A program made the translations under genes and the position numbers. Below are positions 1 to 36,926 of a stretch of 42,375 nucleotides of DNA, piece after piece. Below the pieces are notes generated by a model. It made no database searches. It worked only from the letters and a program-made list of their open reading frames with translations, and had not been told where the DNA came from. How positions within the stretch are numbered: position 1 is the first letter of the stretch; each line of letters begins with the position of its first letter. The stretch comes from a virus: positions 1 through 42,375 of IMG/VR virus record IMGVR_UViG_3300042876_001157. One strand, 5' to 3'.

Positions 1-110
1 TTCCAATTCCTGCGCGTCTTGCGCCAGCGGAGGAAGGACAGGTGGCAGACGAAAAGGAAGCCCGCCGCCATCCCGATGACTCCGAGCACGATCCAAAGCA
101 GCGTCTTCAC
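1..110 (-). CDS. Small membrane protein, 3' end cut by window edge
   Basis: A GTG start at 110 follows a strong AGGAGG ribosome site six bases upstream. The visible 36 residues begin with a Lys, then a hydrophobic helix of about 20 residues (LLWIVLGVIGMAAGFLFVC), then a basic stretch (RWRKTRR). The stop codon lies outside the window. One N-terminal membrane helix with positive charge after it fits a small holin-, spanin- or accessory-type phage membrane protein. It is the last visible gene of the lysis and moron end of the late operon. No family can be assigned from this fragment. Confidence 0.6.
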   Translation of the reverse strand, partial: MKTLLWIVLGVIGMAAGFLFVCHLSFLRWRKTRRNW

Positions 111-23608: not shown

Positions 23609-24071
23609 GCCCCACGCTCAGCGGCACGAGCGGCTGCTCCACGGACCGGTAGGTCTCGGGGTCGCTCAGGTTGACGACGCGGCACCAGCAAGTGCCGCAG
23701 CAGATCGGCGGGCGGTGGTAGTGGACGACGGGGATCCCGCCCTCGGGGGTCGCGTAGGCGAGGCGGTATCGGCTCGAGCGCCGGATCGAGACGACGGCCT
23801 GGTCGATGGGCTCGCGTCGCTTCGGCTTCGCGGCGTCGAGCTGCGCCTGCGACCAGAGATCCGTGGTGGCGAGGCCGAGCGCCGCGGCGATCTTCGCAGC
23901 GGTCTTCGGGCTCGGCGCCGCGTTCGCCTTTCTCTCGGCTGCCCGGAGCGTTTCGCGCGAGAGCCCCGCACGCTCCGCGAGCTCGCCCTGCGTGAGCCCG
24001 GCCGCGAGGCGGGTCTCGGCCAGGATCGTCGAAGCAACCCCGGCGCGAGGACGACGCGGCCCCTGCCTCAC
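23601..24071 (-). CDS. XRE-family HTH regulator with Cys-rich C terminus, 156 aa
   Basis: GTG at 24071 overlaps the methyltransferase stop (GTGA). Residues 17-68 are a clear helix-turn-helix: AETRLAAGLTQGELAERAGLSRETLRAAERKANAAPSPKTAAKIAAALGL. The C-terminal half has SRYRLAYATPEGG and PPICCGTCWCRVV, with four cysteines that may bind a metal. It is translationally coupled to the methyltransferase and lies upstream of the terminase genes, so it may regulate late or packaging transcription. Confidence 0.75.
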   Translation of the reverse strand: MRQGPRRPRAGVASTILAETRLAAGLTQGELAERAGLSRETLRAAERKANAAPSPKTAAKIAAALGLATTDLWSQAQLDAAKPKRREPIDQAVVSIRRSSRYRLAYATPEGGIPVVHYHRPPICCGTCWCRVVNLSDPETYRSVEQPLVPLSVGHA

Positions 24072-25327
24072 CGCCGCCCCCGCTTCGGCCGCTTCGCCTT
24101 CTGGCCCGTGAACTTCTCCCAGCGCGAGACGACGACGTCGGCGTAGCGCGGATCCAGCTCGAGCCCGACGCACGTCCGGCCGAGCAGCTCCGCGGCGATC
24201 AGGGTCGATCCCGAACCCAGGAACGGGTCGAACACGACGCCGCCGTGGGGCGTGCTGTTCCGCAGACACCGCGCGACCAGGCCGAGGGGCTTCACCGTGG
24301 GGTGCTGGTCGGCCGACCGCGGCCGCGGTGCCTCGATCACGGATGCCTGACGGTTATCGCCGAACCATCCGCGGCCACCGCGCCCCCAGCGCCCCGGCCC
24401 CGGCCGGTAGCCGAACAGGATCGGCTCGTGCCGGTAGTGATAGTCCGCGTGCCCGAGCGCGATCGCGTCCTTCAGCCACACGAGGGTCTGGTGGAGGCGC
24501 CAGCCCTGGGCGACGAAGCAGCGGGCGAACTCGATCGAGAGCTCGCCGGCGGGATGCGCGACGTAGACCGCAGCGCCAGGTGCGAGGACGGCGTCGGCGT
24601 TCGCGAATGCCGCGGGGAGCAGGGACGAGAGGTCAGCGGCGGTGTCGTTCGCGATCGAGAGCTTCCGCTTGCCCTTGGACTCGTAGCGCACGCCGTACGG
24701 CGGGTCGGTCCACATGCACGTCGGCTTGAGGTCGCCGACGACGCGATCGATCGCGCCGCGGTCGGTGGAGTCGCCGCAGAGCAGGCGGTGGCGGCCGAGC
24801 TCGATCAGGTCGCCCAGGCGGGATGTCGGCTTCGAGCGCAGGTCCGGGACGTCGTCGTCGGGGACGTCGGCCGCCGGCGCCGCGCTCGTGAGCAGCTCGG
24901 AGATCTCGCGCTCCGTGAACCCGGTGCCGGAGAGATCGGCGCCGGCGGAGCCGAGGTCACGCAGAAGCGCCTCGAGCTTCTCGGGATCCCACTCCCCCGA
25001 GATCCGGTTGAGCGCGACGTTCAGCTGCCGCTCGCGGACCTCGTCGAGGCGGACGTGCACGACGGGAAGGCGTTGGATCCCCTCCGCCTGGGCAGCGCGA
25101 ATCCGCTGGTGCCCACCGACAACGCGCTTCGTGGCGACGTTGACCACGATCGGCTGGACGGCGCCGAACTCACGCAGCGAGCGGCGCAGCGCCTCGAAGT
25201 CGTGGTCGGAGATCGTTCGTGGGTTGTACGCCGAGGCCATCTCGAGCAGGCGCTTGGTCGCAACGGTGGAAACTGAGAAGCCGGCGTGGCTCCGATCGTT
25301 CGAGCGGGCTGTCGCGACCCTCGCCAC
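24068..25327 (-). CDS. Orphan DNA methyltransferase with N-terminal ParB-like domain, 419 aa
   Basis: GTG at 25327 has GGAG five bases upstream. Residues 25-130 are ParB/Srx-like (NPRTISDHDFEALRRSLREFGAVQPIVVN, KRVVGGHQRIRAAQAEG). The C-terminal domain has the methyltransferase motif IV DPPYG near 208-212, and FLGSGSTLIAAELLG with GLELDPRYADVVVSRW near 369-395, the FxGxG motif placed last as in beta-class N6-adenine or N4-cytosine enzymes. There is no restriction endonuclease beside it. It could protect phage DNA from host restriction or mark sites for regulation, and the linked ParB fold may help find DNA. The target site cannot be told by eye. Confidence 0.88.
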   Translation of the reverse strand: MARVATARSNDRSHAGFSVSTVATKRLLEMASAYNPRTISDHDFEALRRSLREFGAVQPIVVNVATKRVVGGHQRIRAAQAEGIQRLPVVHVRLDEVRERQLNVALNRISGEWDPEKLEALLRDLGSAGADLSGTGFTEREISELLTSAAPAADVPDDDVPDLRSKPTSRLGDLIELGRHRLLCGDSTDRGAIDRVVGDLKPTCMWTDPPYGVRYESKGKRKLSIANDTAADLSSLLPAAFANADAVLAPGAAVYVAHPAGELSIEFARCFVAQGWRLHQTLVWLKDAIALGHADYHYRHEPILFGYRPGPGRWGRGGRGWFGDNRQASVIEAPRPRSADQHPTVKPLGLVARCLRNSTPHGGVVFDPFLGSGSTLIAAELLGRTCVGLELDPRYADVVVSRWEKFTGQKAKRPKRGRR

Positions 25328-26667: not shown

Positions 26668-27686
26668 GGGGCGAGATCTCCGGATGCCCCGCTGCGTCGC
26701 TTCGCGTTGAACTCCTGCACCGCTTTCGCTCGCGCCTCGTGGTACTCCAGGCCTTCCGCCTGGTAGTGCTCGGTGCGGTCGTCGAGCCACTGCCGGTCCG
26801 CTGCGTACTGTTCGAGTCTCTCGAGTTGGAGGGTGGGGTCGGTGCTGGTACGCCAGGGGTCGCCCGTGACCTCCGGCTTCGGGGGTGGGACGTCTCCAAA
26901 CTCGTCGGTCCATCGCTCGTTCCGGATCCAACGGACTGCGTCGGCGAACTCGGGCCGGAACTTGCCGATCCGGTCGCAGGCCTCGGCGTGGTCCCGTTGC
27001 CGCTGGATGGCGGAGACGAGTTCGTCCGCTCGGGTCTCGAGCTTCTTGGCGAGCCAGAGCTTCCTGGCCTGGGCCTTCCCGGCCTTCGAGCCGTTGCGAG
27101 GTGGATAAGCCTCCCAGAACCGGTCGAACCCGGGGAGGCCGGTCGAGCGAGCGGCGCGTGTCGGCGCAGCCGACCGCGCGAAGCTTTTGTCTTCCTGAGC
27201 CTGAGTAAGAGTAAGAGCCTGAGTAAGAGGGGGGGTTTTCGTATCCCCCCGGAGGGGGGTTTTAGAAACCCCCGGGTGGGGGGTTTCGTCTTTCTTCGGT
27301 CGCCCGCCCAGTTTTCCGAACTCTGCGCCCTTTTTGCCATGCTCCTTGCCGAGGTCGCCGTTGCTTCTCGCCCTAACAGACCAATCCAGGCGTCCGGAGC
27401 CCCCCTTGATTCGCAGCCGCTTCCCGCCCGAACGAGGTTGTACTTCGACGAGTTCGGCGTCGATCATCGCGGCGGCGAGTCCACGGTGAAACGCGTCGAG
27501 GTCTCGACGGTGAACCACGAGCAGCCCACGGTCGGAACAGTAGTCCCAGACCTGGAGGGCCATGTACAAACCGACGGCCCGGTGAACGATTCCCTCTTCC
27601 ATCTTGTGTAGGGGATCGAGGTGCGATCCCAGTACGGTGAATCTGGGGTCGGTGAGTGCCTGCTTCTCGACGCTGGTGCGTGCCAT
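26664..27686 (-). CDS. Replication initiator/organiser-like protein, 340 aa
   Basis: ATG at 27686. The N-terminal 95 residues resemble winged-helix organiser proteins of phage replisomes (FTVLGSHLDPLHKMEEGIVHRAVGLYMALQVWDYCSDRGLLVV). A linker of about 40 residues, repetitive at the DNA level, follows. The C-terminal part has GFDRFWEAYPPRNGSKAGKAQARKLWLAKKLETRADELVSAI, the 'fd.FW..YP.k..k..A...w..' domain seen in DnaT- and DnaD-linked phage initiators. It probably recruits the helicase to the origin. A final helical segment with many charges follows. It lies between ParB-like and nuclease-like genes. Confidence 0.7.
   Translation of the reverse strand: MARTSVEKQALTDPRFTVLGSHLDPLHKMEEGIVHRAVGLYMALQVWDYCSDRGLLVVHRRDLDAFHRGLAAAMIDAELVEVQPRSGGKRLRIKGGSGRLDWSVRARSNGDLGKEHGKKGAEFGKLGGRPKKDETPHPGVSKTPLRGDTKTPPLTQALTLTQAQEDKSFARSAAPTRAARSTGLPGFDRFWEAYPPRNGSKAGKAQARKLWLAKKLETRADELVSAIQRQRDHAEACDRIGKFRPEFADAVRWIRNERWTDEFGDVPPPKPEVTGDPWRTSTDPTLQLERLEQYAADRQWLDDRTEHYQAEGLEYHEARAKAVQEFNAKRRSGASGDLAP
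27197..27289. repeat. Repeat-rich linker of the initiator gene (candidate origin)
   Basis: A 15-bp direct repeat (GAGCCTGAGTAAGAG at 27197-27211 and 27215-27229) is followed by three runs of six or seven G plus T (GGGGGGTTT at about 27230-27238, 27254-27262, 27278-27286) with C-run partners between them. The strand is highly asymmetric and could fold into hairpins or a G-quadruplex. The position within the initiator gene resembles the lambda O gene, where iterons for the initiator sit inside the coding region. That this is an origin is inference. Confidence 0.45.
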
Positions 27687-29194: not shown

Positions 29195-29406
29195 AGGACC
29201 TTCCGGTCGTCCAGCTGCTGACCGATCCACTTCTCGGCGGCGTCCGTGGGCTCCGGCGTGTCGTCGACGGCGATCACCATGACGAGCTGGCCACCGTGGG
29301 ACGTGATGGAGTGGTGGCGGGCGTGGAGGCGCTCCGCTGCGAGCCAGGCGTTCGCCCGCTCATCGAGCGCCTGCGGGGTGCGTGCAGTCAGGACGACGTA
29401 CCTCAC
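29191..29406 (-). CDS. Small hypothetical protein, 71 aa
   Basis: ATG at 29406 overlaps the stop of the preceding zinc gene. The sequence opens as a strand and helix (MRYVVLTARTPQALDERANAWLAAERL), continues with ARHHSITSHGGQLVMVIAVDD, and ends with a helix AAEKWIGQQLDDRKVL, in the pattern of a small alpha/beta protein. No family is recognised. Confidence 0.6.
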   Translation of the reverse strand: MRYVVLTARTPQALDERANAWLAAERLHARHHSITSHGGQLVMVIAVDDTPEPTDAAEKWIGQQLDDRKVL

Positions 29407-29654
29407 AGCGTGATCCTCCGGGCGGCCTGCGCCTCGAGCTGTTCGAAGAGCCAGGGCCGCCCCGTGGCGTGGGCGTAGGAGATCTCGGCGATCGTCCTGC
29501 AGCGGGAGCAGATCTCGGGGGCGACCCAGTGGCAGGTGATGGGGAAGCCGTCGCGCATCCCCTCGCAGCAGGCGTTGTCGTCGGTGCAGCCGCAGCCGAT
29601 GCAGCGGGGCCGCGGGGTCAGTCGCTCAGACTCTACGGCGCTCTCCAGGACCAT
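29403..29654 (-). CDS. Zinc-binding protein (CxxC-rich), start inside the repeat array
   Basis: The body is clear: PRCIGCGCTDDNACCEGMRDGFPITCHWVAPEICSRC has the 'C..CGctd..aC.......pC.W......C..C' pattern of small phage zinc proteins. The N terminus is less sure. ATG 29654 has AGGTGGAG six bases before it, but any start upstream of about 29610 lies within the 36-bp repeat array, so the first dozen residues (MVLESAVESERL) are translated array. A longer reading from 29687 is also open. Translation through the last repeats is implied in either case. Confidence 0.6.
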   Translation of the reverse strand: MVLESAVESERLTPRPRCIGCGCTDDNACCEGMRDGFPITCHWVAPEICSRCRTIAEISYAHATGRPWLFEQLEAQAARRITL

Positions 29655-30338
29655 GGCTCGCTCCACCTGTATGGCTCTCTCGGTCATCTCGGCTCACTCC
29701 AGCAACACGGTGCTCTCTCAAGAAACGGTTCGATCCTCGTACTCGGCGCCCTCTGGTACGACGACTCGCTCTCCTGCAACGGCGCTGTCTATCAACACGG
29801 CTCGCTCTGAGTCGGCGGCGCTCTCCGATCTCTCGGCTCGCTCCGCGTGTGCGGTGATCTCGTTCCTGTCGGCTCGCTCAAATGCTGCGGTCCCCTCAAC
29901 GTCTACGGCTCGCTCCCGGTAAGCGGAACCCTCTCTTACCGCGGCTCGCTCATCGGGTACGGTTCCCTCTGACGAATCGGCTCGCTCCGGCGTAACGGTG
30001 CTCTCATGGTGCACGGCTCGCTCACGCTGGGAGGTGCCCTCATCTTCTTCGGCTCGCTCATTGTGGACGGAACTCTCTCGATTCGCGGCTCGCTCGTCGT
30101 CATCGGTACGCTTCGGCGGCTCGGCTCGCTCGCGTTCGTCGATGCGCTCAGTTGAGTCGGCTCGCTCATCCTTGTCGGTGCTCTTTCCTTCCGCGGCTCG
30201 CTCGTTTCCATCGGCACTTTCGATAGACGCGGCTCGCTCGGCAGATGCGGTGCTCTCGTGCACGCTGGCTCGCTCGCGGGCCACGGGACTCTCGGGTGAG
30301 CCGGCTCGCTCCCCTTTAGCGGCACCCACAGTGGACAG
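29619..30338 (-). repeat. TIGR-like tandem guide-RNA array, 20 units of 36 bp
   Basis: Twenty units follow in exact 36-bp phase. Given on the plus strand, each is GGCTCGCTC (edge), nine variable bases, a looser block of form GGnnnnCTC (loop), and nine more variable bases. Read in the transcription direction the edge is GAGCGAGCC and the loop GAGnnnnCC, both usually followed by G, so true spacers are eight or nine bases. Fourteen of 20 edges are identical from 29799 to 30311, plus one at 29655; the edges at 29619, 29691, 29727 and 29763 differ. Forty spacers are nearly all different. The layout (two short spacers per 36-bp unit, two repeat types, directly after a Nop/IS110-like gene) matches tandem interspaced guide RNA arrays. 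Conservation at every base of the 9-bp edge, including third codon positions in all frames, argues against a coding role. Confidence 0.85.
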
Positions 30339-30340
30339 GG

Positions 30341-31180
30341 CTACTCGCACGGCCACAGCGGCGGCGCGAGGAAATGGGTATGGTCGTCTTTGGTCAGGAT
30401 GTACGGCTTCGGCGGCGGCTCCCCGAACCGGCTCTCGTACATCACGTGGTGCAGGTGGCTCAGGAACAGCTTCACCGCGTAGCGTTCCGCCCGCAGCTCC
30501 AGCCGACCCGCCGGCAGCTTCCCGGCCTCGTAGGTCGCGCGCGTGTCCTTGTCCCGGATCGCCTTCGCTTCGAGCGTGCGCTTCGCCGTCTCCGCGAACG
30601 TCCCGGCCTCGTTGCGCGCCAGCTCCAGCGCCTTCCGTTCGGCGTACACACGGCCGTAGACGTCGTTGGGGGAGTTGCGGAGCTTCATGAAGCTCTGCCC
30701 GGTCTTCCAGCAAAGCACCTTCAGCTTCGCGTTCCACGGGCGCTTCTGGCCCTTCCCCCACGTCACCGTCGGGTCGAGCCCGGCGAAGCGCCAGATGTGC
30801 CCGACCGTCGGCGCCTTCTCGATGTCGATGTGCGCGAGGAGCCCGGACGCGATCACCGGGCCGATGCCGTGGATCGAGAGCGCCCAGCGCCCCGCACGAT
30901 GGGACTCGGCGTAGTCACGGAGCGCCTTCCGGATCTCGTTCTCGACCGTCTCGAAGGCCTCGAAGCCCCACAGCAGAAGACCGTGAGGCTCCACCGGCTC
31001 GCCCTCCTTCGGGGAGGTGGCGGACCGGACCTGGTTGGCGGTGCTGATCCGATAGTCCTGCACCTGGTAGTAGAGATCGACAACGAACCGGACCTCCGCT
31101 TTCGTCAGCTCGCCCGCGCGCTTGCGCAGGTCGCGGGAGACCTTGGAGATCGGGTGGGCGTTCTCGAGGATGGAGCTCAA
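30341..31180 (-). CDS. tas: Tas-like protein (Nop/IS110 C-terminal domain, no nuclease), 279 aa
   Basis: ATG at 31180 overlaps the upstream stop (ATGA). The protein has a helical N terminus (1-95: DLRKRAGELTKAEVRFVVDLYYQVQDYRIS and EAFETVENEIRKALRDY) and then the region shared by IS110-family transposases and Nop domains. It has LSIHGIGPVIASGLLAHIDI (101-120), HIWRFAGLDP (128-137) and WNAKLKVLCWKTGQSFMKL (149-167), with a long helical end. The N-terminal DEDD/RuvC domain of IS110 is absent, and where IS110 has its Ser-Gly the sequence reads TWGKGQKRP, so catalysis is unlikely. TIGR-associated Tas proteins of the nuclease-less kind are Nop-only RNA-guided DNA binders, and the adjacent array fits that. 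The alternative is a domesticated IS110 fragment. The stop is 2 bp from the array. Confidence 0.8.
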   Translation of the reverse strand: MSSILENAHPISKVSRDLRKRAGELTKAEVRFVVDLYYQVQDYRISTANQVRSATSPKEGEPVEPHGLLLWGFEAFETVENEIRKALRDYAESHRAGRWALSIHGIGPVIASGLLAHIDIEKAPTVGHIWRFAGLDPTVTWGKGQKRPWNAKLKVLCWKTGQSFMKLRNSPNDVYGRVYAERKALELARNEAGTFAETAKRTLEAKAIRDKDTRATYEAGKLPAGRLELRAERYAVKLFLSHLHHVMYESRFGEPPPKPYILTKDDHTHFLAPPLWPCE

Positions 31181-31668
31181 CGGACACCTCCAGAGGTGAG
31201 CATCCGCGCCGCCGGCGCCCCCATGAGCTTCGGGAGCTGCGGCAGCACGGCCTCGGCGACTGTCTGACCGTCATCGCGAAGGAAGAACGGGAGGAAGATC
31301 GCCTCGAAGGGGACGATGCCGTCCTCGACGGCCTCGAGCGCGGCCTTGATCCACAGGTGGAGGACCCGGTGCTCGCGGCGACCGCGCTTCGCCATCAGGT
31401 CGGCGTAGCGGACGTCGGAGAAGCCCCGCGCGCCCGTCGCGTGTTTCGTGATCTCCGCCTCGAGCGGGAGCCCGATCGAGAACTGGACCTTGTAGGCGAC
31501 CGCGCGATCACCAACGAGCCGAGGGACGATGAACTGCAGGATGACGCGGTCCTTGGCGAAGTCGTCGTACCAGCCGATCCCTTCGCACTTCCAGCGGCGG
31601 AGGATCTCGCCGATCTGCTCGCGCGAGCGCGAGATCGCGACCTCGGTGTCCTCGGCGTAGCGCCTCAT
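31177..31668 (-). CDS. Conserved phage protein, coupled upstream of tas, 163 aa
   Basis: ATG at 31668 overlaps the upstream stop; its own stop overlaps the tas start. The protein opens with RRYAEDTEVAISRSREQIGEILRRW, followed by YDDFAKDRVILQFIVPRL and AYKVQFSIGLPLEAEI. Later it has RREHRVLHLWIKAALEAVEDGIVPFEAIFLPFFLRDDGQTVAEAVLPQL. The phrase pattern 'R..a..tsV...rS..Ei...L...g', then 'R..wr.l.l.iKakLe.ve.gi.t.e.eFl....l..g.tv.e....l' is familiar from many phage and plasmid proteins of unknown function. I do not know its role. Its coupling to tas makes it worth checking as a partner. Confidence 0.7.
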   Translation of the reverse strand: MRRYAEDTEVAISRSREQIGEILRRWKCEGIGWYDDFAKDRVILQFIVPRLVGDRAVAYKVQFSIGLPLEAEITKHATGARGFSDVRYADLMAKRGRREHRVLHLWIKAALEAVEDGIVPFEAIFLPFFLRDDGQTVAEAVLPQLPKLMGAPAARMLTSGGVR

Positions 31669-32797: not shown

Positions 32798-32968
32798 CCG
32801 GGCCTTCTTCGGCGGCGCCGCCGACGCCGATTTGGCGATCATCGGTGAGTAGCACCTGGGGCACCACGGCACCTCGTCCTTGGGAACCTCGCCGGGTCCG
32901 ATGCGCTTCTCGAGTCCGCAGCCGATACACTCGGCAGTCACGTAGGCGGTAGGTGTGCTGACGTTCAT
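32774..32968 (-). CDS. Zinc-ribbon protein, 64 aa
   Basis: ATG at 32968 overlaps the Rad50-like gene stop (ATGA). The start is TAYVTAECIGCGLEKRIGPGEVPKDEVPWCPRCYSPM, with two C-x-x-C pairs in zinc-ribbon spacing. The tail is Ala/Lys-rich (PPKKARAKKAGAA). It may bind DNA or act as a partner of the recombination ATPase encoded just upstream. Confidence 0.65.
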   Translation of the reverse strand: MNVSTPTAYVTAECIGCGLEKRIGPGEVPKDEVPWCPRCYSPMIAKSASAAPPKKARAKKAGAA

Positions 32969-34944
32969 GCCGCCTCCCCCGCCTCGACAGCGCCGGGGCT
33001 GGAGATCTCCCCCGCCTGGACGTGGTAGTAGCGCGTGCCCGCCCGTCCTTCGTCGACGGCGGCGTTCTGCTCGATCGCCAGCTGCTCGAACTCATCGGCA
33101 TCCATCGTCCGCACCGCCAGCGCGAACCACTGGCATCCGGAGTCCTCCAGCATCGTGAGGGTCGAGTCGAGCGATTCGGGGGCGAGGGCCTCGAAGTCGT
33201 CGATCACGACCAGGCCGAGGCCCGTGAACTTCGCGACCGCGATCGCGAGCGCCGCGCCGAACCGGATTCGCCCCGAGTTCGACAGATCGCCCGCCGCGAA
33301 GGTGACGCCGGTGTCGAGGCGCGTGATCCGGGGATCACCCTCGAGGTCGACGACGGGCCGCAGGTCCACCTTGAACCCGAGCGGCTGGAGCGTGGCGTTG
33401 AGATCCTCGTGGAGGCGGAAGAGCCCGTCGCCCCCGCCGATAGCCTTGCGGATCCCGTTGGGCCCGAGCGCCTCGAGAAGCTGCGTGAGGGCGGCGTAGC
33501 GAGCCTCGACGGCCGCCTTCCTGGCGAGCCCCTGGGCGTGCGTCCGCCGCGCGCCGGCGTACTCCCGGAGCGCTTCGATGAGGGCGTTCCCTCTCTCGAT
33601 TCGCTCACTCAGCTCGTCGGCCTCGATGTCGGCCTTCGCGTCGCCGGGCGTCTCGGGGGCGGCCTGCGCCTCGTCGAGCTTCGCGCGCGCGGCCTTCAGA
33701 TCCTGCTCGAGGCGGTCGGCCTCCGCCTCCAGCTCGTGACGCCGCCTGGCCTTCGCGTCGACGCCGTCCGCTTCCCTCTGGATCTCGAGCGTCGAGAGCG
33801 GATCCGGCACCGTGTCCAGCTCCACCTTGATCCGCTGCGCCTCGCGCTCCCCCGATTCCCACTGCTTCGTGAGGGTGTCGAGGACCGTCTTCAGCGTCGC
33901 GGCCTTCAGCTTGGTCGCACAGATCGGGCAGTCCGACGCGTCCTTCGGCTGAGCCTTCAGGGTGTCGAGGGCCTGCTTCGCGCGAGCCGCCGTCCCCTTG
34001 GCCTCGCCGTGCCGCGCACTGAGATCGCGCCGGCGATCGTCGAGAGCCTGGTTTTCGGTCTCAGCCTCGACGCGCTTCTTCGCCAGCTCCTTCGCGCGCT
34101 TCTGGAGCGCCTCGGGAGTCGGGATCCCCTCGATCTCCTTCAAGACGCCGGCGAGCGCCCGGTCGAGGCGCATGACCTCCGCCTGGGGGCCGGCGGTATC
34201 CGGCTTCACCGGTCGCGATCGCGCGAGGGCAGCATCCCGCTCCCGCGCGAGGTCGGTGATCTGCGTCCGCATTTCCGCCGCCTCAGCGTCGAGATTGGCG
34301 AGCGAACTGCCGGCGAGATCCTCGAAGCCCTCCGGCGGCGCCGGCGCCTCGAGAGAGCCGTGGGCCTTCACCTCGCGGCCTGTCGCCTCGCGCTCCGCGT
34401 AGACGGCCTTGTGGAGCCGGTCGAGGGTGTCGACGTCGGCCGACGCGTGGTCCTCCGCGAGCGCCGCCTTGATCGCGGCCCGGACCTCGGCGGGGATCTC
34501 GATCGACGCGCGCGGCGCCAGGTCGAGGATGAGGCGCTGCCTGGCCTTGGCGTCGAGGTCGAGGAGCGTCCCGGTGTACAGGCACGCCCTCGCCTTCGGG
34601 CCCGGGCAGCCGGTGAGGGACTCGATCAGATCCTGCGCCTTCGACCGCGGGCCCTCGTCGTCGCGGCGCTGGAACGTGTGGACCTCCCCCTTGGCGTCCA
34701 CGAACTCCATCTGCAGGCCCCACTTCTTCGAGGGGTCGCCGTGGGTCGAGCGGAGCTTCGCTAGGCCCTGGCCGCTCTCGTAGCCGTCGCAGGTGCCGGT
34801 CAGCAGCAGCGAGAGCGCGCGGCGGAAGGTGGACTTCCCGGCGTCGTTGGGGCCGACGAGGATGTTGCCGCCGTCGAAGAACAGCGGGGAGTCGAGGTGG
34901 ACGAGGGGGCCGAGGTTCCTGGCGCGGAGGCGACGGAGCTTCAT
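32965..34944 (-). CDS. Rad50/SbcC/RecF-like recombination ATPase, 659 aa
   Basis: All main landmarks are present. The N-terminal Walker A is GPNDAGKST (31-39). Coiled coils flank a zinc-hook DCPICATKL (338-346, C-P-I-C). The signature-type LSNSGRIRFG lies near 554-563 and Walker B GLVVIDDFEA near 574-583. It is short for SbcC but right for phage homologues. It probably tethers and processes broken or replicating DNA with the exonuclease encoded nearby. Its start is ATG 34944, ten bases after the RDF-like stop. Confidence 0.88.
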   Translation of the reverse strand: MKLRRLRARNLGPLVHLDSPLFFDGGNILVGPNDAGKSTFRRALSLLLTGTCDGYESGQGLAKLRSTHGDPSKKWGLQMEFVDAKGEVHTFQRRDDEGPRSKAQDLIESLTGCPGPKARACLYTGTLLDLDAKARQRLILDLAPRASIEIPAEVRAAIKAALAEDHASADVDTLDRLHKAVYAEREATGREVKAHGSLEAPAPPEGFEDLAGSSLANLDAEAAEMRTQITDLARERDAALARSRPVKPDTAGPQAEVMRLDRALAGVLKEIEGIPTPEALQKRAKELAKKRVEAETENQALDDRRRDLSARHGEAKGTAARAKQALDTLKAQPKDASDCPICATKLKAATLKTVLDTLTKQWESGEREAQRIKVELDTVPDPLSTLEIQREADGVDAKARRRHELEAEADRLEQDLKAARAKLDEAQAAPETPGDAKADIEADELSERIERGNALIEALREYAGARRTHAQGLARKAAVEARYAALTQLLEALGPNGIRKAIGGGDGLFRLHEDLNATLQPLGFKVDLRPVVDLEGDPRITRLDTGVTFAAGDLSNSGRIRFGAALAIAVAKFTGLGLVVIDDFEALAPESLDSTLTMLEDSGCQWFALAVRTMDADEFEQLAIEQNAAVDEGRAGTRYYHVQAGEISSPGAVEAGEAA

Positions 34945-34953
34945 CGTCCCCTC

Positions 34954-36054
34954 CTAGAACCGCCGCCGGGTGGCGGGCTTGGCCGCGGGGGCCGGAGCAG
35001 CGGCGGGCTGCGGCTTGCCGCTCAGCGCGGCCTCGGCCGACGCGGAGACGGGGGCCTTCCCGAACGGGTGCTCGTCGGTCGAGGGGTCGGGGTCGGCCGG
35101 AGCGACGGCTATCGCCGCGGGCGTGGCGAGCTTCGTGGTCAGGGCGTCGAGCTTCCCCTGCCCCGGCGCGGGCGCGAGGCTGGCGGCAGCCGGCTCCGGC
35201 GGGTGGAACTCGCTGCTCACGTCGTCCGCTTCGATCTCGTCCTCGTCAACGCCGGGGGCCTTGAGCAGCGCGCGGTACTGGCGTTCCGTCGCCGCCATCT
35301 CCTTCGCGTAGTCGAGCTCGTGGCGCCGCCGCTCGAGCGCGAGGCGCTGGACCTCGCCGAGGTCCGTCCCGGCGAGCTCGAGGTGGACGACGTAGACGGT
35401 CGTAGGCTTGCCTTCGGGGGTGACCTGGATCGGACGCACGACGAGCCGGAGCGGTACGCCCCGGAGGACGCCGCACGTCAGGTCGCGAACGTGCATGAGC
35501 GATCCGAGCAGCTGCTCGCCCGTGATCTGCGAGGTCGTCCGGAGGAAGTAGACCCCGCCCCAGTTCGCGCTCTTCGATGCGATCACGCACGCGAACTTCG
35601 TGTGGAGCTTCCAGATCGGGCCGCCGCTTGAGTTTTTGAGCGCCAGGAATTCGTCCCGCCACGGCTCCTCGATCGGCGGGTCCAGGAACTTCCCGTCCTT
35701 GACGAACCGCGTGACCGTCTTCCCGTCCTCGCACCGCGCGAGACAGGTGCGGCCGTTGGAGGCGACGTAGGACGCCTGGATGATCTCCTCGACGTCGTTG
35801 GACAAGACCGCGACCGGTAGCCGTCGGATCTTGCCGTCCTCGTCTCCGTGCTCCTCGCGGAGCTGCGCCATCAGGGCTTCGTCGAGGACCAGGTCGTCCT
35901 TCGCGTCACGCTGAAGCGTCGTGATCAGGAAGTGGTCGAGCTTCTCGGGGATCCGGTAGGTGCCGCCGCCCTGCTTCTGGCGCTCGGCGCCCTTGCGACC
36001 GATCTTGATCTTCCCGAGCTCGCAGAGCCGCGGGCGAAGAAGTGCGACGCTCAC
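34954..36054 (-). CDS. Recombination directionality factor-like (gp3-type) protein, 366 aa
   Basis: ATG at 36054 overlaps the exonuclease stop (ATGA). The opening GKIKIGRKGAERQKQGGGTYRIPEKLDHFLITTLQRD resembles the 'G.IrlG......g...rP..ld.fr.T' start of gp3-like directionality factors. YVASNGRTCLARCEDGKTVTR matches the place of the C-x-x-C/D-G region, and DLTCGVLRGVPLRLVVRPIQVTPEGK the later strand pattern. The C-terminal 100 residues are a low-complexity Pro/Ala tail. Such proteins control integrase direction in serine-recombinase phages, but in other phages they travel with exonucleases. A recombination accessory role is the safer reading. Confidence 0.6.
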   Translation of the reverse strand: MSVALLRPRLCELGKIKIGRKGAERQKQGGGTYRIPEKLDHFLITTLQRDAKDDLVLDEALMAQLREEHGDEDGKIRRLPVAVLSNDVEEIIQASYVASNGRTCLARCEDGKTVTRFVKDGKFLDPPIEEPWRDEFLALKNSSGGPIWKLHTKFACVIASKSANWGGVYFLRTTSQITGEQLLGSLMHVRDLTCGVLRGVPLRLVVRPIQVTPEGKPTTVYVVHLELAGTDLGEVQRLALERRRHELDYAKEMAATERQYRALLKAPGVDEDEIEADDVSSEFHPPEPAAASLAPAPGQGKLDALTTKLATPAAIAVAPADPDPSTDEHPFGKAPVSASAEAALSGKPQPAAAPAPAAKPATRRRF

Positions 36055-36926
36055 TTGCTCCTCCTGAGCTCGCGGAACTCGGTCGCGTTCACCGAGTAGG
36101 CGCGGCGCTTTTGCAGCTTGAAGGTGTAGCGGCCGATGCCGCCGGGAAGGACGCCGACCTCGGCATCACCGATCAGGAACTTCAGCTTGGCCTCGGCCTC
36201 GTCCTTCAGTTTCTCCAGGCGGTCGATTTCGCTCTTGGCCGAGAGGCGCTGGCGGTCCATCTCGATCGCCTCCTCGGGAAGGTCGATGCTCCGGCCCTCG
36301 ATCGCCGCGAAGATCTTGCCGATAACCTTCACGTCGCCGGCCTGCGGCTCGGGGGGCGTGTCGTCCTGGACGAGCTTCCAGAACGCGCGCTCGCGCGAGA
36401 TCAGCGCCGCGATGAACTCGTCGTTCCGCTCGACGTCCTGGTACTTGAACTCGATCCCGCCGAGGAGTCCCGCCACGGACCCCCAGGTGGCGCCCGTGAC
36501 GGCGAGGTAGTGCTGGAGCTGCACCTGCGCGGGGAGCGGCGCCTCGTCCTCCCACTCGCGGATGCGGAAGACGTTGGCGGCCTTCGCCTCCAGGATGCCG
36601 GGCGTCTCGTGCTGCATCGCCTCGATCGCGCGGTCGGGGTGACCGATCATCCAGTCGTGTTCCGGGTGTCGCGCCAGGCCCGGAACCGTCACGACCTTTC
36701 GGCCGGTCTCGATCTCGTACTCCGACGCGACGACCACTTCGAGCTTCCTGCCGCGGCGGAGGATCGGGCTCTCCTTGGTGTCGGCGGTGCGGCCGGTCTT
36801 CTCCATCCAGAGCTGCAGCGGCGTCTTCCACGTGCTCAGCCCGAGAATCACGGGGGCGTCGCTGCCTCCGATGCCGAGGAGCCGCTCCGCCAGGAACGCC
36901 TCCCGGGCCTGTTCTGCCTGTTCCAT
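36051..36926 (-). CDS. YqaJ-type viral recombinase exonuclease, 291 aa
   Basis: Start ATG 36926 has AAAGG eight bases upstream. The N terminus GIGGSDAPVILGLSTWKTPLQLWMEKTG is the family opening. The active-site residues can be followed: E63 (in RGRKLE), D98 (GHPDR), and E113 and K115 (ILEAK). The later region QVQLQHYLAVTGATWGSVAGLLGG also matches lambda-exo-like enzymes. It would digest the 5' strand for annealing recombination. A helical tail follows. The 93-base gap upstream has a GGCCGGG/CCCCGGCC hairpin but no T-run. Confidence 0.9.
   Translation of the reverse strand: MEQAEQAREAFLAERLLGIGGSDAPVILGLSTWKTPLQLWMEKTGRTADTKESPILRRGRKLEVVVASEYEIETGRKVVTVPGLARHPEHDWMIGHPDRAIEAMQHETPGILEAKAANVFRIREWEDEAPLPAQVQLQHYLAVTGATWGSVAGLLGGIEFKYQDVERNDEFIAALISRERAFWKLVQDDTPPEPQAGDVKVIGKIFAAIEGRSIDLPEEAIEMDRQRLSAKSEIDRLEKLKDEAEAKLKFLIGDAEVGVLPGGIGRYTFKLQKRRAYSVNATEFRELRRSK

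What the first reader, a model, noticed from the sequence alone, without database searches (positions are those of the whole stretch)
29619..31180. A TIGR-Tas-type RNA-guided system in a phage: Tas-like gene followed by a 36-bp dual-spacer array
Seen: 20 units in exact 36-bp phase, each with two conserved 9-bp blocks and two variable 9-base blocks, starting 2 bp after the stop codon of a gene with an IS110/Nop-like C-terminal domain and no nuclease domain. Known: TIGR-Tas systems, described in phages and small bacteria, have tandem interspaced guide RNAs with two short spacers per unit and Nop-domain Tas proteins related to IS110. Inferred: this phage makes short guide RNAs from the operon transcript and uses the Tas-like protein to bind DNA sites set by pairs of spacers.
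Basis: partly seen in the sequence, partly recalled or inferred. Interest (0 to 1): 0.95.

Follow-up and report, generated by a model that had tools for sequence, protein, structure and literature searches.

The report
Phage RNA-guided TIGR-TasA system
This phage carries a TIGR-TasA system, a recently described kind of RNA-guided DNA-binding machine with 20 two-part guides and no DNA-cutting domain; the kind is known, but comparing its relatives gives a first, unproven hint of what such systems target: early genes of rival phage-like elements.

Summary
On the minus strand, a 279-aa gene (31180-30341) is followed at once by 20 units of exactly 36 bp (30340-29621): edge repeat GAGCGAGCCG, 8-nt spacer, loop repeat GAGRGYRCCG, 8-nt spacer. 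The protein folds as a solo Nop-domain Tas protein (pLDDT 90.6; the 11 best PDB fold hits are all TasH or TasR, then IS110 recombinases) without RuvC, HNH or DEDD domain, so it is a TasA. Some 65 relatives were found, mostly viral; nearly all have the same dual-repeat array. Edge and loop repeats covary, with Watson-Crick covariation at positions 3-8 (both) and 4-7 (edge). Close relatives gain and lose whole edge-delimited units. All six frames carry stops. It is a new member of a known kind (Faure et al. 2025). Additions: the tasA stop codon is built into the first edge repeat (29 of 41 loci); no self-targets; and in a related prophage one of six guides matches 16/16, and another 14/16, excisionase-like and replication-O-like genes of another integrated phage-like element in the same bacterium. 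That lead is suggestive only; a second host gave nothing.

The parts
30341..31180 (-). tasA: 279-aa solo Nop-domain TIGR-associated protein (TTG start overlaps the stop of the upstream gene as TTGA; TAG stop at 30343-30341)
   Evidence: (PHROG 4285, E 2.4e-47)
29621..30340 (-). TIGR array: 20 units of 36 bp, edge repeat (10) - spacer A (8) - loop repeat (10) - spacer B (8)
30338..30343 (-). 5'-truncated first edge repeat (TAGCCC = positions 5-10) that contains the tasA stop codon
   Evidence: stop codon inside the first edge repeat in 29 of 41 loci
29618..29627 (-). 3'-truncated last edge repeat (GAGCGA kept, then CTGA)
31177..31668 (-). upstream gene (163 aa, PHROG 17260, unknown), overlapping the tasA start, probably translationally coupled; not a conserved partner (1 of 66 loci)
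29403..29655 (-). downstream small cysteine-rich ORF whose likely ATG (29655-29653) and ribosome-binding site (GGTGGAG) lie in the last array unit; another possible ATG is at 29687
   Evidence: ORF; start choice is inference

Best explanation
A phage-borne TIGR-TasA system. tasA and the array form one transcript. The array is cut in the middle of each edge repeat into about twenty 36-nt tigRNAs. A TasA dimer holds each tigRNA by the matching box C/D-like ends of edge and loop repeats, and the two 8-nt spacers pair with opposite strands of adjacent DNA, reading 5'-spacerA-(0-2 nt)-revcomp(spacerB)-3', about 16 bp in all. TasA has no nuclease, so it acts by binding and bending: the most likely use is to block early transcription or replication of competing mobile elements, much as nuclease-free CRISPR types do. 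Shown here: protein family and fold, array architecture, RNA-level covariation, unit-wise inheritance, no self-targets. Inferred from studied relatives: processing, dimer, two-strand targeting, bending. Inferred with weak evidence: what is targeted (about even odds for interference with rivals). The confidence given is for identity as a TIGR-TasA system that works as the studied ones do.
For: Sequence: phmmer to TasR 9mty 6e-14 and TasH 21kl 1.5e-9. Profile search: TasR 4.9e-29, TasH 2.9e-17, ahead of IS621 2.4e-4 and ISCro4 2.8e-3. Fold: AF2 pLDDT 90.6, pTM 0.87; Foldseek ranks 1-11 are all TasH or TasR complexes (E 9e-7 to 6e-4), ranks 12-22 IS621/ISCro4. Array statistics. 63 viral relatives, nearly all with a 33-37 bp array, and all but one detected chain on the tas strand. 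Last base of edge and loop: A/A 44, G/G 13, discordant 1. Positions 3-8 have the highest mutual information of all pairs in both repeats and covary as G-C, A-T, T-A; edge 4-7 covaries too, as described for TasR repeats in PMC12045711. Between close relatives, spacers flanking a loop are co-inherited (114 both, 72 one) more than spacers flanking an edge (87, 132), Fisher p 1.7e-5. No self-targets against a mispaired null. Target lead in a related prophage.
Against: No RNA or binding data. No target found for this phage's own 20 units. The target lead rests on one host; in the second host (L066 in G002) 5 of 6 units had no exact match. No intrinsic terminator or sigma-70-type promoter was found, while published arrays typically end at a terminator. 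The last units of the array are more degenerate (for example edge GATCGAACCG). Related loci are not independent, so the p-values are optimistic.
Confidence: 0.88

Rival explanations
1. The same TIGR-TasA system, but used on the phage's own or its host's DNA: gene regulation, or bending DNA to help integration, rather than interference with rivals.
For: TasA lacks a nuclease; Faure et al. propose DNA bending as a possible aid to phage integrases (PMC12045711). The phage has an excisionase-like gene.
Against: No A-revcomp(B) site in the 42-kb genome beyond the mispaired null, and none in excess for 1107 family units against their own flanks. Twenty different guides suit many targets rather than one att site.
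Confidence: 0.25
2. A decaying, no longer working TIGR-TasA locus.
For: Loop repeats and the last units are imperfect; no terminator found.
Against: The tasA frame is intact with the conserved residues of the family and a confident fold; edge repeats are near-invariant over 16 units; 20 units is above the usual 5-15.
Confidence: 0.08
3. A protein-coding tandem repeat (12-residue repeats, 36 bp = 12 codons).
For: 36 is a multiple of 3, and a mechanical 347-aa ORF covers most of the array.
Against: Stops occur in all six frames over the array (6, 12, 2 sense; 4, 4, 1 antisense). Relatives have 34-, 35- and 37-bp units. Covariation follows base pairing within the repeat.
Confidence: 0.01
4. An IS110-type transposase with a bridge RNA or fortuitous repeats.
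For: Pfam names the C-terminal match Transposase_20; PHROG 4285 is labelled 'transposase'.
Against: No DEDD catalytic domain; the full-length match is to Tas proteins, with IS621 far behind; the array has 20 units, not one two-loop RNA.
Confidence: 0.02

Closest known systems
TIGR-TasA of Flavonifractor plautii (FpTIGR; Faure et al. 2025, PMC12045711)
   Same: Solo Nop-domain protein next to a dual-repeat array; FpTasA binds 36-nt tigRNAs.
   Different: FpTIGR has 18 variable nt per unit, this one 16 by our reading; its repeat sequences were not compared (not in the text read).
TIGR-TasH of Salicola phage CGphi29 (SpTIGR)
   Same: Phage-borne, 16 variable nt per unit, homologous Nop domain (E 2e-6 by tblastn; fold hits).
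   Different: TasH has an N-terminal HNH nuclease; the window protein has none.
TIGR-TasR (PDB 9mty)
   Same: Same Nop fold (Foldseek E 1.9e-6), same edge/loop box C/D-like pairing logic.
   Different: TasR has a RuvC nuclease and boxes UG/CCA; here the repeats begin GA and end CCG.
IS110-family recombinases (IS621, ISCro4)
   Same: Related RNA-binding domain.
   Different: DEDD catalytic domain and a single bridge RNA; no array.
Type IV and type V-M CRISPR (works like, not a member)
   Same: Nuclease-free RNA-guided interference carried by mobile elements (as cited in PMC12045711).
   Different: Different proteins, guide architecture and origin.

Membership tests
TIGR-Tas, dual-repeat type | Nop-domain Tas protein related to IS110 and Nop | tested here: met
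   TasR 4.9e-29, TasH 2.9e-17; top 11 fold hits are Tas
TIGR-Tas, dual-repeat type | adjacent array of two alternating 8-12-nt repeats with about 9-nt spacers | tested here: met
   10-nt repeats and 8-nt spacers (as in SpTIGR), 20 units
TIGR-Tas, dual-repeat type | edge and loop repeats share covarying end motifs (box C/D-like) with Watson-Crick pairing | tested here: met
[quoted passage not shown]
TIGR-Tas, dual-repeat type | rho-independent terminator after the array (typical, not required) | tested here: not met
   none found by a simple consensus scan; the array runs into the next gene
TIGR-Tas, dual-repeat type | array processed into 36-nt tigRNAs bound by Tas | not testable with these tools
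   needs RNA sequencing
TIGR-Tas, dual-repeat type | two spacers pair with opposite strands of adjacent DNA | not testable with these tools
   only indirect: the target lead in L065's host uses that geometry with gap 0
TasA subtype | no nuclease domain | tested here: met
   the upstream in-frame extension is short and shows no domain
IS110 transposase | N-terminal DEDD catalytic domain | tested here: not met
   residues 1-100 are helices only; Pfam finds only Transposase_20 at 101-139

The most novel reading that the evidence does not exclude
TasA arrays in prophages carry guides against the excision switch and replication genes of competing integrated phage-like elements, and TasA works there as a nuclease-free RNA-guided repressor. 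The TasA prophage of Acidobacteriaceae bacterium KBS 96 would be the first natural example: unit 2 matches the start of a Cox-like excisionase gene 16/16, and unit 5 an O-like replication gene 14/16, of another element in the same genome.
Probability: 0.3. Interest if true: 0.85.

Novelty: new member of a known kind. Interest (0 to 1): 0.5.

Why it matters
TIGR-Tas systems were described in 2025, and their natural targets, the origin of their guides and the use of nuclease-free TasA are open questions in that paper. This locus and its 60-odd relatives give a large, clean comparative set: they show that units, not single spacers, are gained and lost; that the tasA stop codon doubles as part of the first guide's repeat, which ties guide processing to the tasA message; and they yield one concrete, testable target candidate in a bacterium whose genome is sequenced.

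Tried and rejected
Self-targeting by the window's 20 units in four layouts and gaps -2 to 6: no excess over mispaired controls. Targets of 1107 family units in relatives' sequences: 5 exact hits at gaps 0-2 (3 of them one homologous site) against about 1-2 expected, and no mismatch-tolerant excess. The window's third unit (A GCGTGCAC, B CATCTGCC) in IMG/VR: 23 exact hits, no co-hits of other units above null. The L065 unit-2 sequence is not rare in IMG/VR as a whole (94 stretches), so only the small host genome makes its match notable. A hit of L065 unit 4 in the unrelated genome G002 lies in what looks like a housekeeping gene and is taken as chance. A too permissive array finder was discarded and replaced. 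No conserved partner gene near tasA: upstream gene in 1 of 66 loci, ParB-methyltransferase within 1.5 kb in 1. No relatives in plasmids, no DNA-level relatives of the locus in phages, no PADLOC match for TasA. Relatives of the target element's O-like gene in viral contigs: none.

Full report
The observation. The window is a virus record of 42,375 bp. On the minus strand a 279-codon gene (31180-30341) is followed without gap by a repeat block, 30340-29621. Cut in 36-bp steps it gives 20 units with no indel. Column statistics give an edge repeat GAGCGAGCCG and a loop repeat GAGRGYRCCG, each 10 nt, and two 8-nt stretches with almost no conservation; summed information is 33.8 bits against 7.7 +/- 0.6 in shuffles. 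One array was found in the window.

The protein. Pfam finds only Transposase_20 (IS110 C-terminal domain) at residues 101-139. phmmer against PDB chains finds TasR 9mty (6e-14) and TasH 21kl (1.5e-9). A profile of 48 family members finds TasR at 4.9e-29, TasH at 2.9e-17, IS621 at 2.4e-4 and ISCro4 at 2.8e-3. The AlphaFold2 model is confident (pLDDT 90.6, pTM 0.87). Foldseek against the PDB ranks eleven TasH and TasR chains first, then IS621 and ISCro4. No RuvC, HNH or DEDD domain is present, so it is a TasA in the terms of Faure et al. 2025 (PMC12045711). PHROG 4285, labelled 'transposase', covers the whole protein.

The family. A scan of IMG/VR returned 63 loci with relatives at 35-59% identity, and bacterial genomes three more: Acidobacteriaceae bacterium KBS 96 (whose prophage L065 has the same array as viral locus L011), Candidatus Propionivibrio aalborgensis and an uncultured Pelomonas. 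Nearly all have a period of 33-37 bp next to the gene, and detected array chains lie on the tas strand in all loci, with one extra opposite chain in L016. In the phage collection, Salicola phage CGphi29, source of the published TasH, is found.

RNA-level evidence. Across 58 loci the last base of the edge and loop repeats agrees in 57 (A/A 44, G/G 13). In both repeats, positions 3 and 8 have the highest mutual information of all position pairs examined and vary as G-C, A-T and T-A; in the edge repeat positions 4 and 7 covary as well. That is the pattern reported for TasR repeats, where both repeats hold box C/D pairs and the edge an extra pair. The loci are related, so the counts are not independent events. 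Stops in all six frames over the window's array exclude a single coding reading.

Unit-wise inheritance. Close relatives share spacers in the same order with block gains and losses. Two spacers around a loop repeat are inherited together more often (114 both, 72 one) than two spacers around an edge repeat (87, 132; p 1.7e-5), and keep adjacency in 111 of 114 against 70 of 87. So the evolving unit is edge-A-loop-B, the same unit that is cut out as tigRNA in studied systems. This result uses no assumption about function.

The stop codon. In 29 of 41 loci with an array close downstream, the tas stop codon falls at positions 4-7 of the first edge repeat (phase 11 or 12 of 18; binomial p about 4e-19, ignoring relatedness). 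In the window TAG-CCC is that repeat. The part kept at the start (positions 5-10) and at the end (GAGCGA, positions 1-6) brackets the likely cut between positions 4 and 7. Inference: cutting the first edge repeat would cut the tasA message at its stop codon, a possible negative feedback.

Targets. From the published 8-nt 3' overhangs and C-5 rule a target should read spacerA-(0-2)-revcomp(spacerB); this reading is our derivation. The window's genome has no such sites beyond mispaired controls, nor do relatives' sequences in general. The KBS 96 prophage (L065) has six units. All were searched as exact patterns in its 6.7-Mb host and two other genomes. Unit 2 has one exact hit in the host, at 6,329,962, where 0.04 hits were expected for the six units together. 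It lies about eight codons inside a small gene with an HTH_17 domain, weakly similar to Cox-like excisionases, divergent from a HTH_3 repressor gene and a tyrosine integrase, with phage capsid and prohead protease genes nearby. Unit 5 has a 14/16 match, mismatched only at the first two bases of spacer A, 0.9 kb away inside an ORF weakly similar to O-like replication initiators (E 0.004). Of 977 units of other TasA phages none matches this 7.8-kb element exactly and 1.4% match with two mismatches or fewer. The element was chosen because of the exact hit, so these numbers are a lead and not a test. A second host (G002, 5 of 6 units of L066) gave no hit, and one chance-like hit of unit 4 fell in an unrelated genome.

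Mechanism proposed. tasA and array are co-transcribed; the array is cut in edge repeats; a TasA dimer with one tigRNA binds a 16-bp site on both strands; without a nuclease it blocks or bends. The most plausible use is interference with early genes of rival elements, by analogy with type IV and V-M CRISPR and with the target lead; own or host gene regulation is the main rival. Identity as TIGR-TasA is nearly certain; function is about even odds for interference.

Verdict. The kind is already published, including in phages, so this is a new member. What lifts it above routine are the comparative observations and the testable target candidate.

Noticed in passing
window 30341-31180 and PHROG 4285: PHROG 4285 ('transposase', integration and excision) matches this TasA over its full length; the family is probably mislabelled and would find further TIGR-TasA phages.
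   Followed up: partly
L068 7963-7978 and 7053-7068 (G001 C1 6,329,962 and about 6,329,052): Exact and near-exact matches of two guides of the KBS 96 TasA prophage in excisionase-like and O-like genes of a compact phage-like element (integrase, repressor, capsid, protease), possibly a satellite or prophage remnant.
   Followed up: partly
window 29403-29687: The next gene's likely start codon and ribosome-binding site lie inside the last TIGR units, so array and gene overlap.
   Followed up: no
window 24068-25327: ParB-like domain fused to a DNA methyltransferase (PHROG 498 and 620); relatives occur in 5 of 66 TasA loci, one within 1.5 kb of tasA. Faure et al. report tasA-parB operons.
   Followed up: partly
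window 32965-34944 and 36051-36926: SbcC-like or LmuB-like ATPase and a RecE-like exonuclease just upstream of the TIGR locus.
   Followed up: no
window 27230-27286: Tandem 24-bp repeat GGGGGGTTTTAGAAACCCCCCGGA, 2.4 copies, each containing an inverted repeat.
   Followed up: no
L044, L051 (37 bp); L045, L062, L067 (34 bp); L052 (35 bp); L057 (33 bp): Related TasA loci whose best local period is not 36 bp, so loop or spacer length seems to vary within the family.
   Followed up: no
L066 9743-9950: Two units differ by a single base in spacer A and share spacer B, which looks like unit duplication followed by mutation.
   Followed up: no
window array units 12 and 17 (from the tasA side): In unit 12 spacers A (CGGTAAGA) and B (CTTACCGG) are nearly reverse complements of each other, as are parts of unit 17 (TCGTACCA and AGTACGAG).
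   Followed up: no
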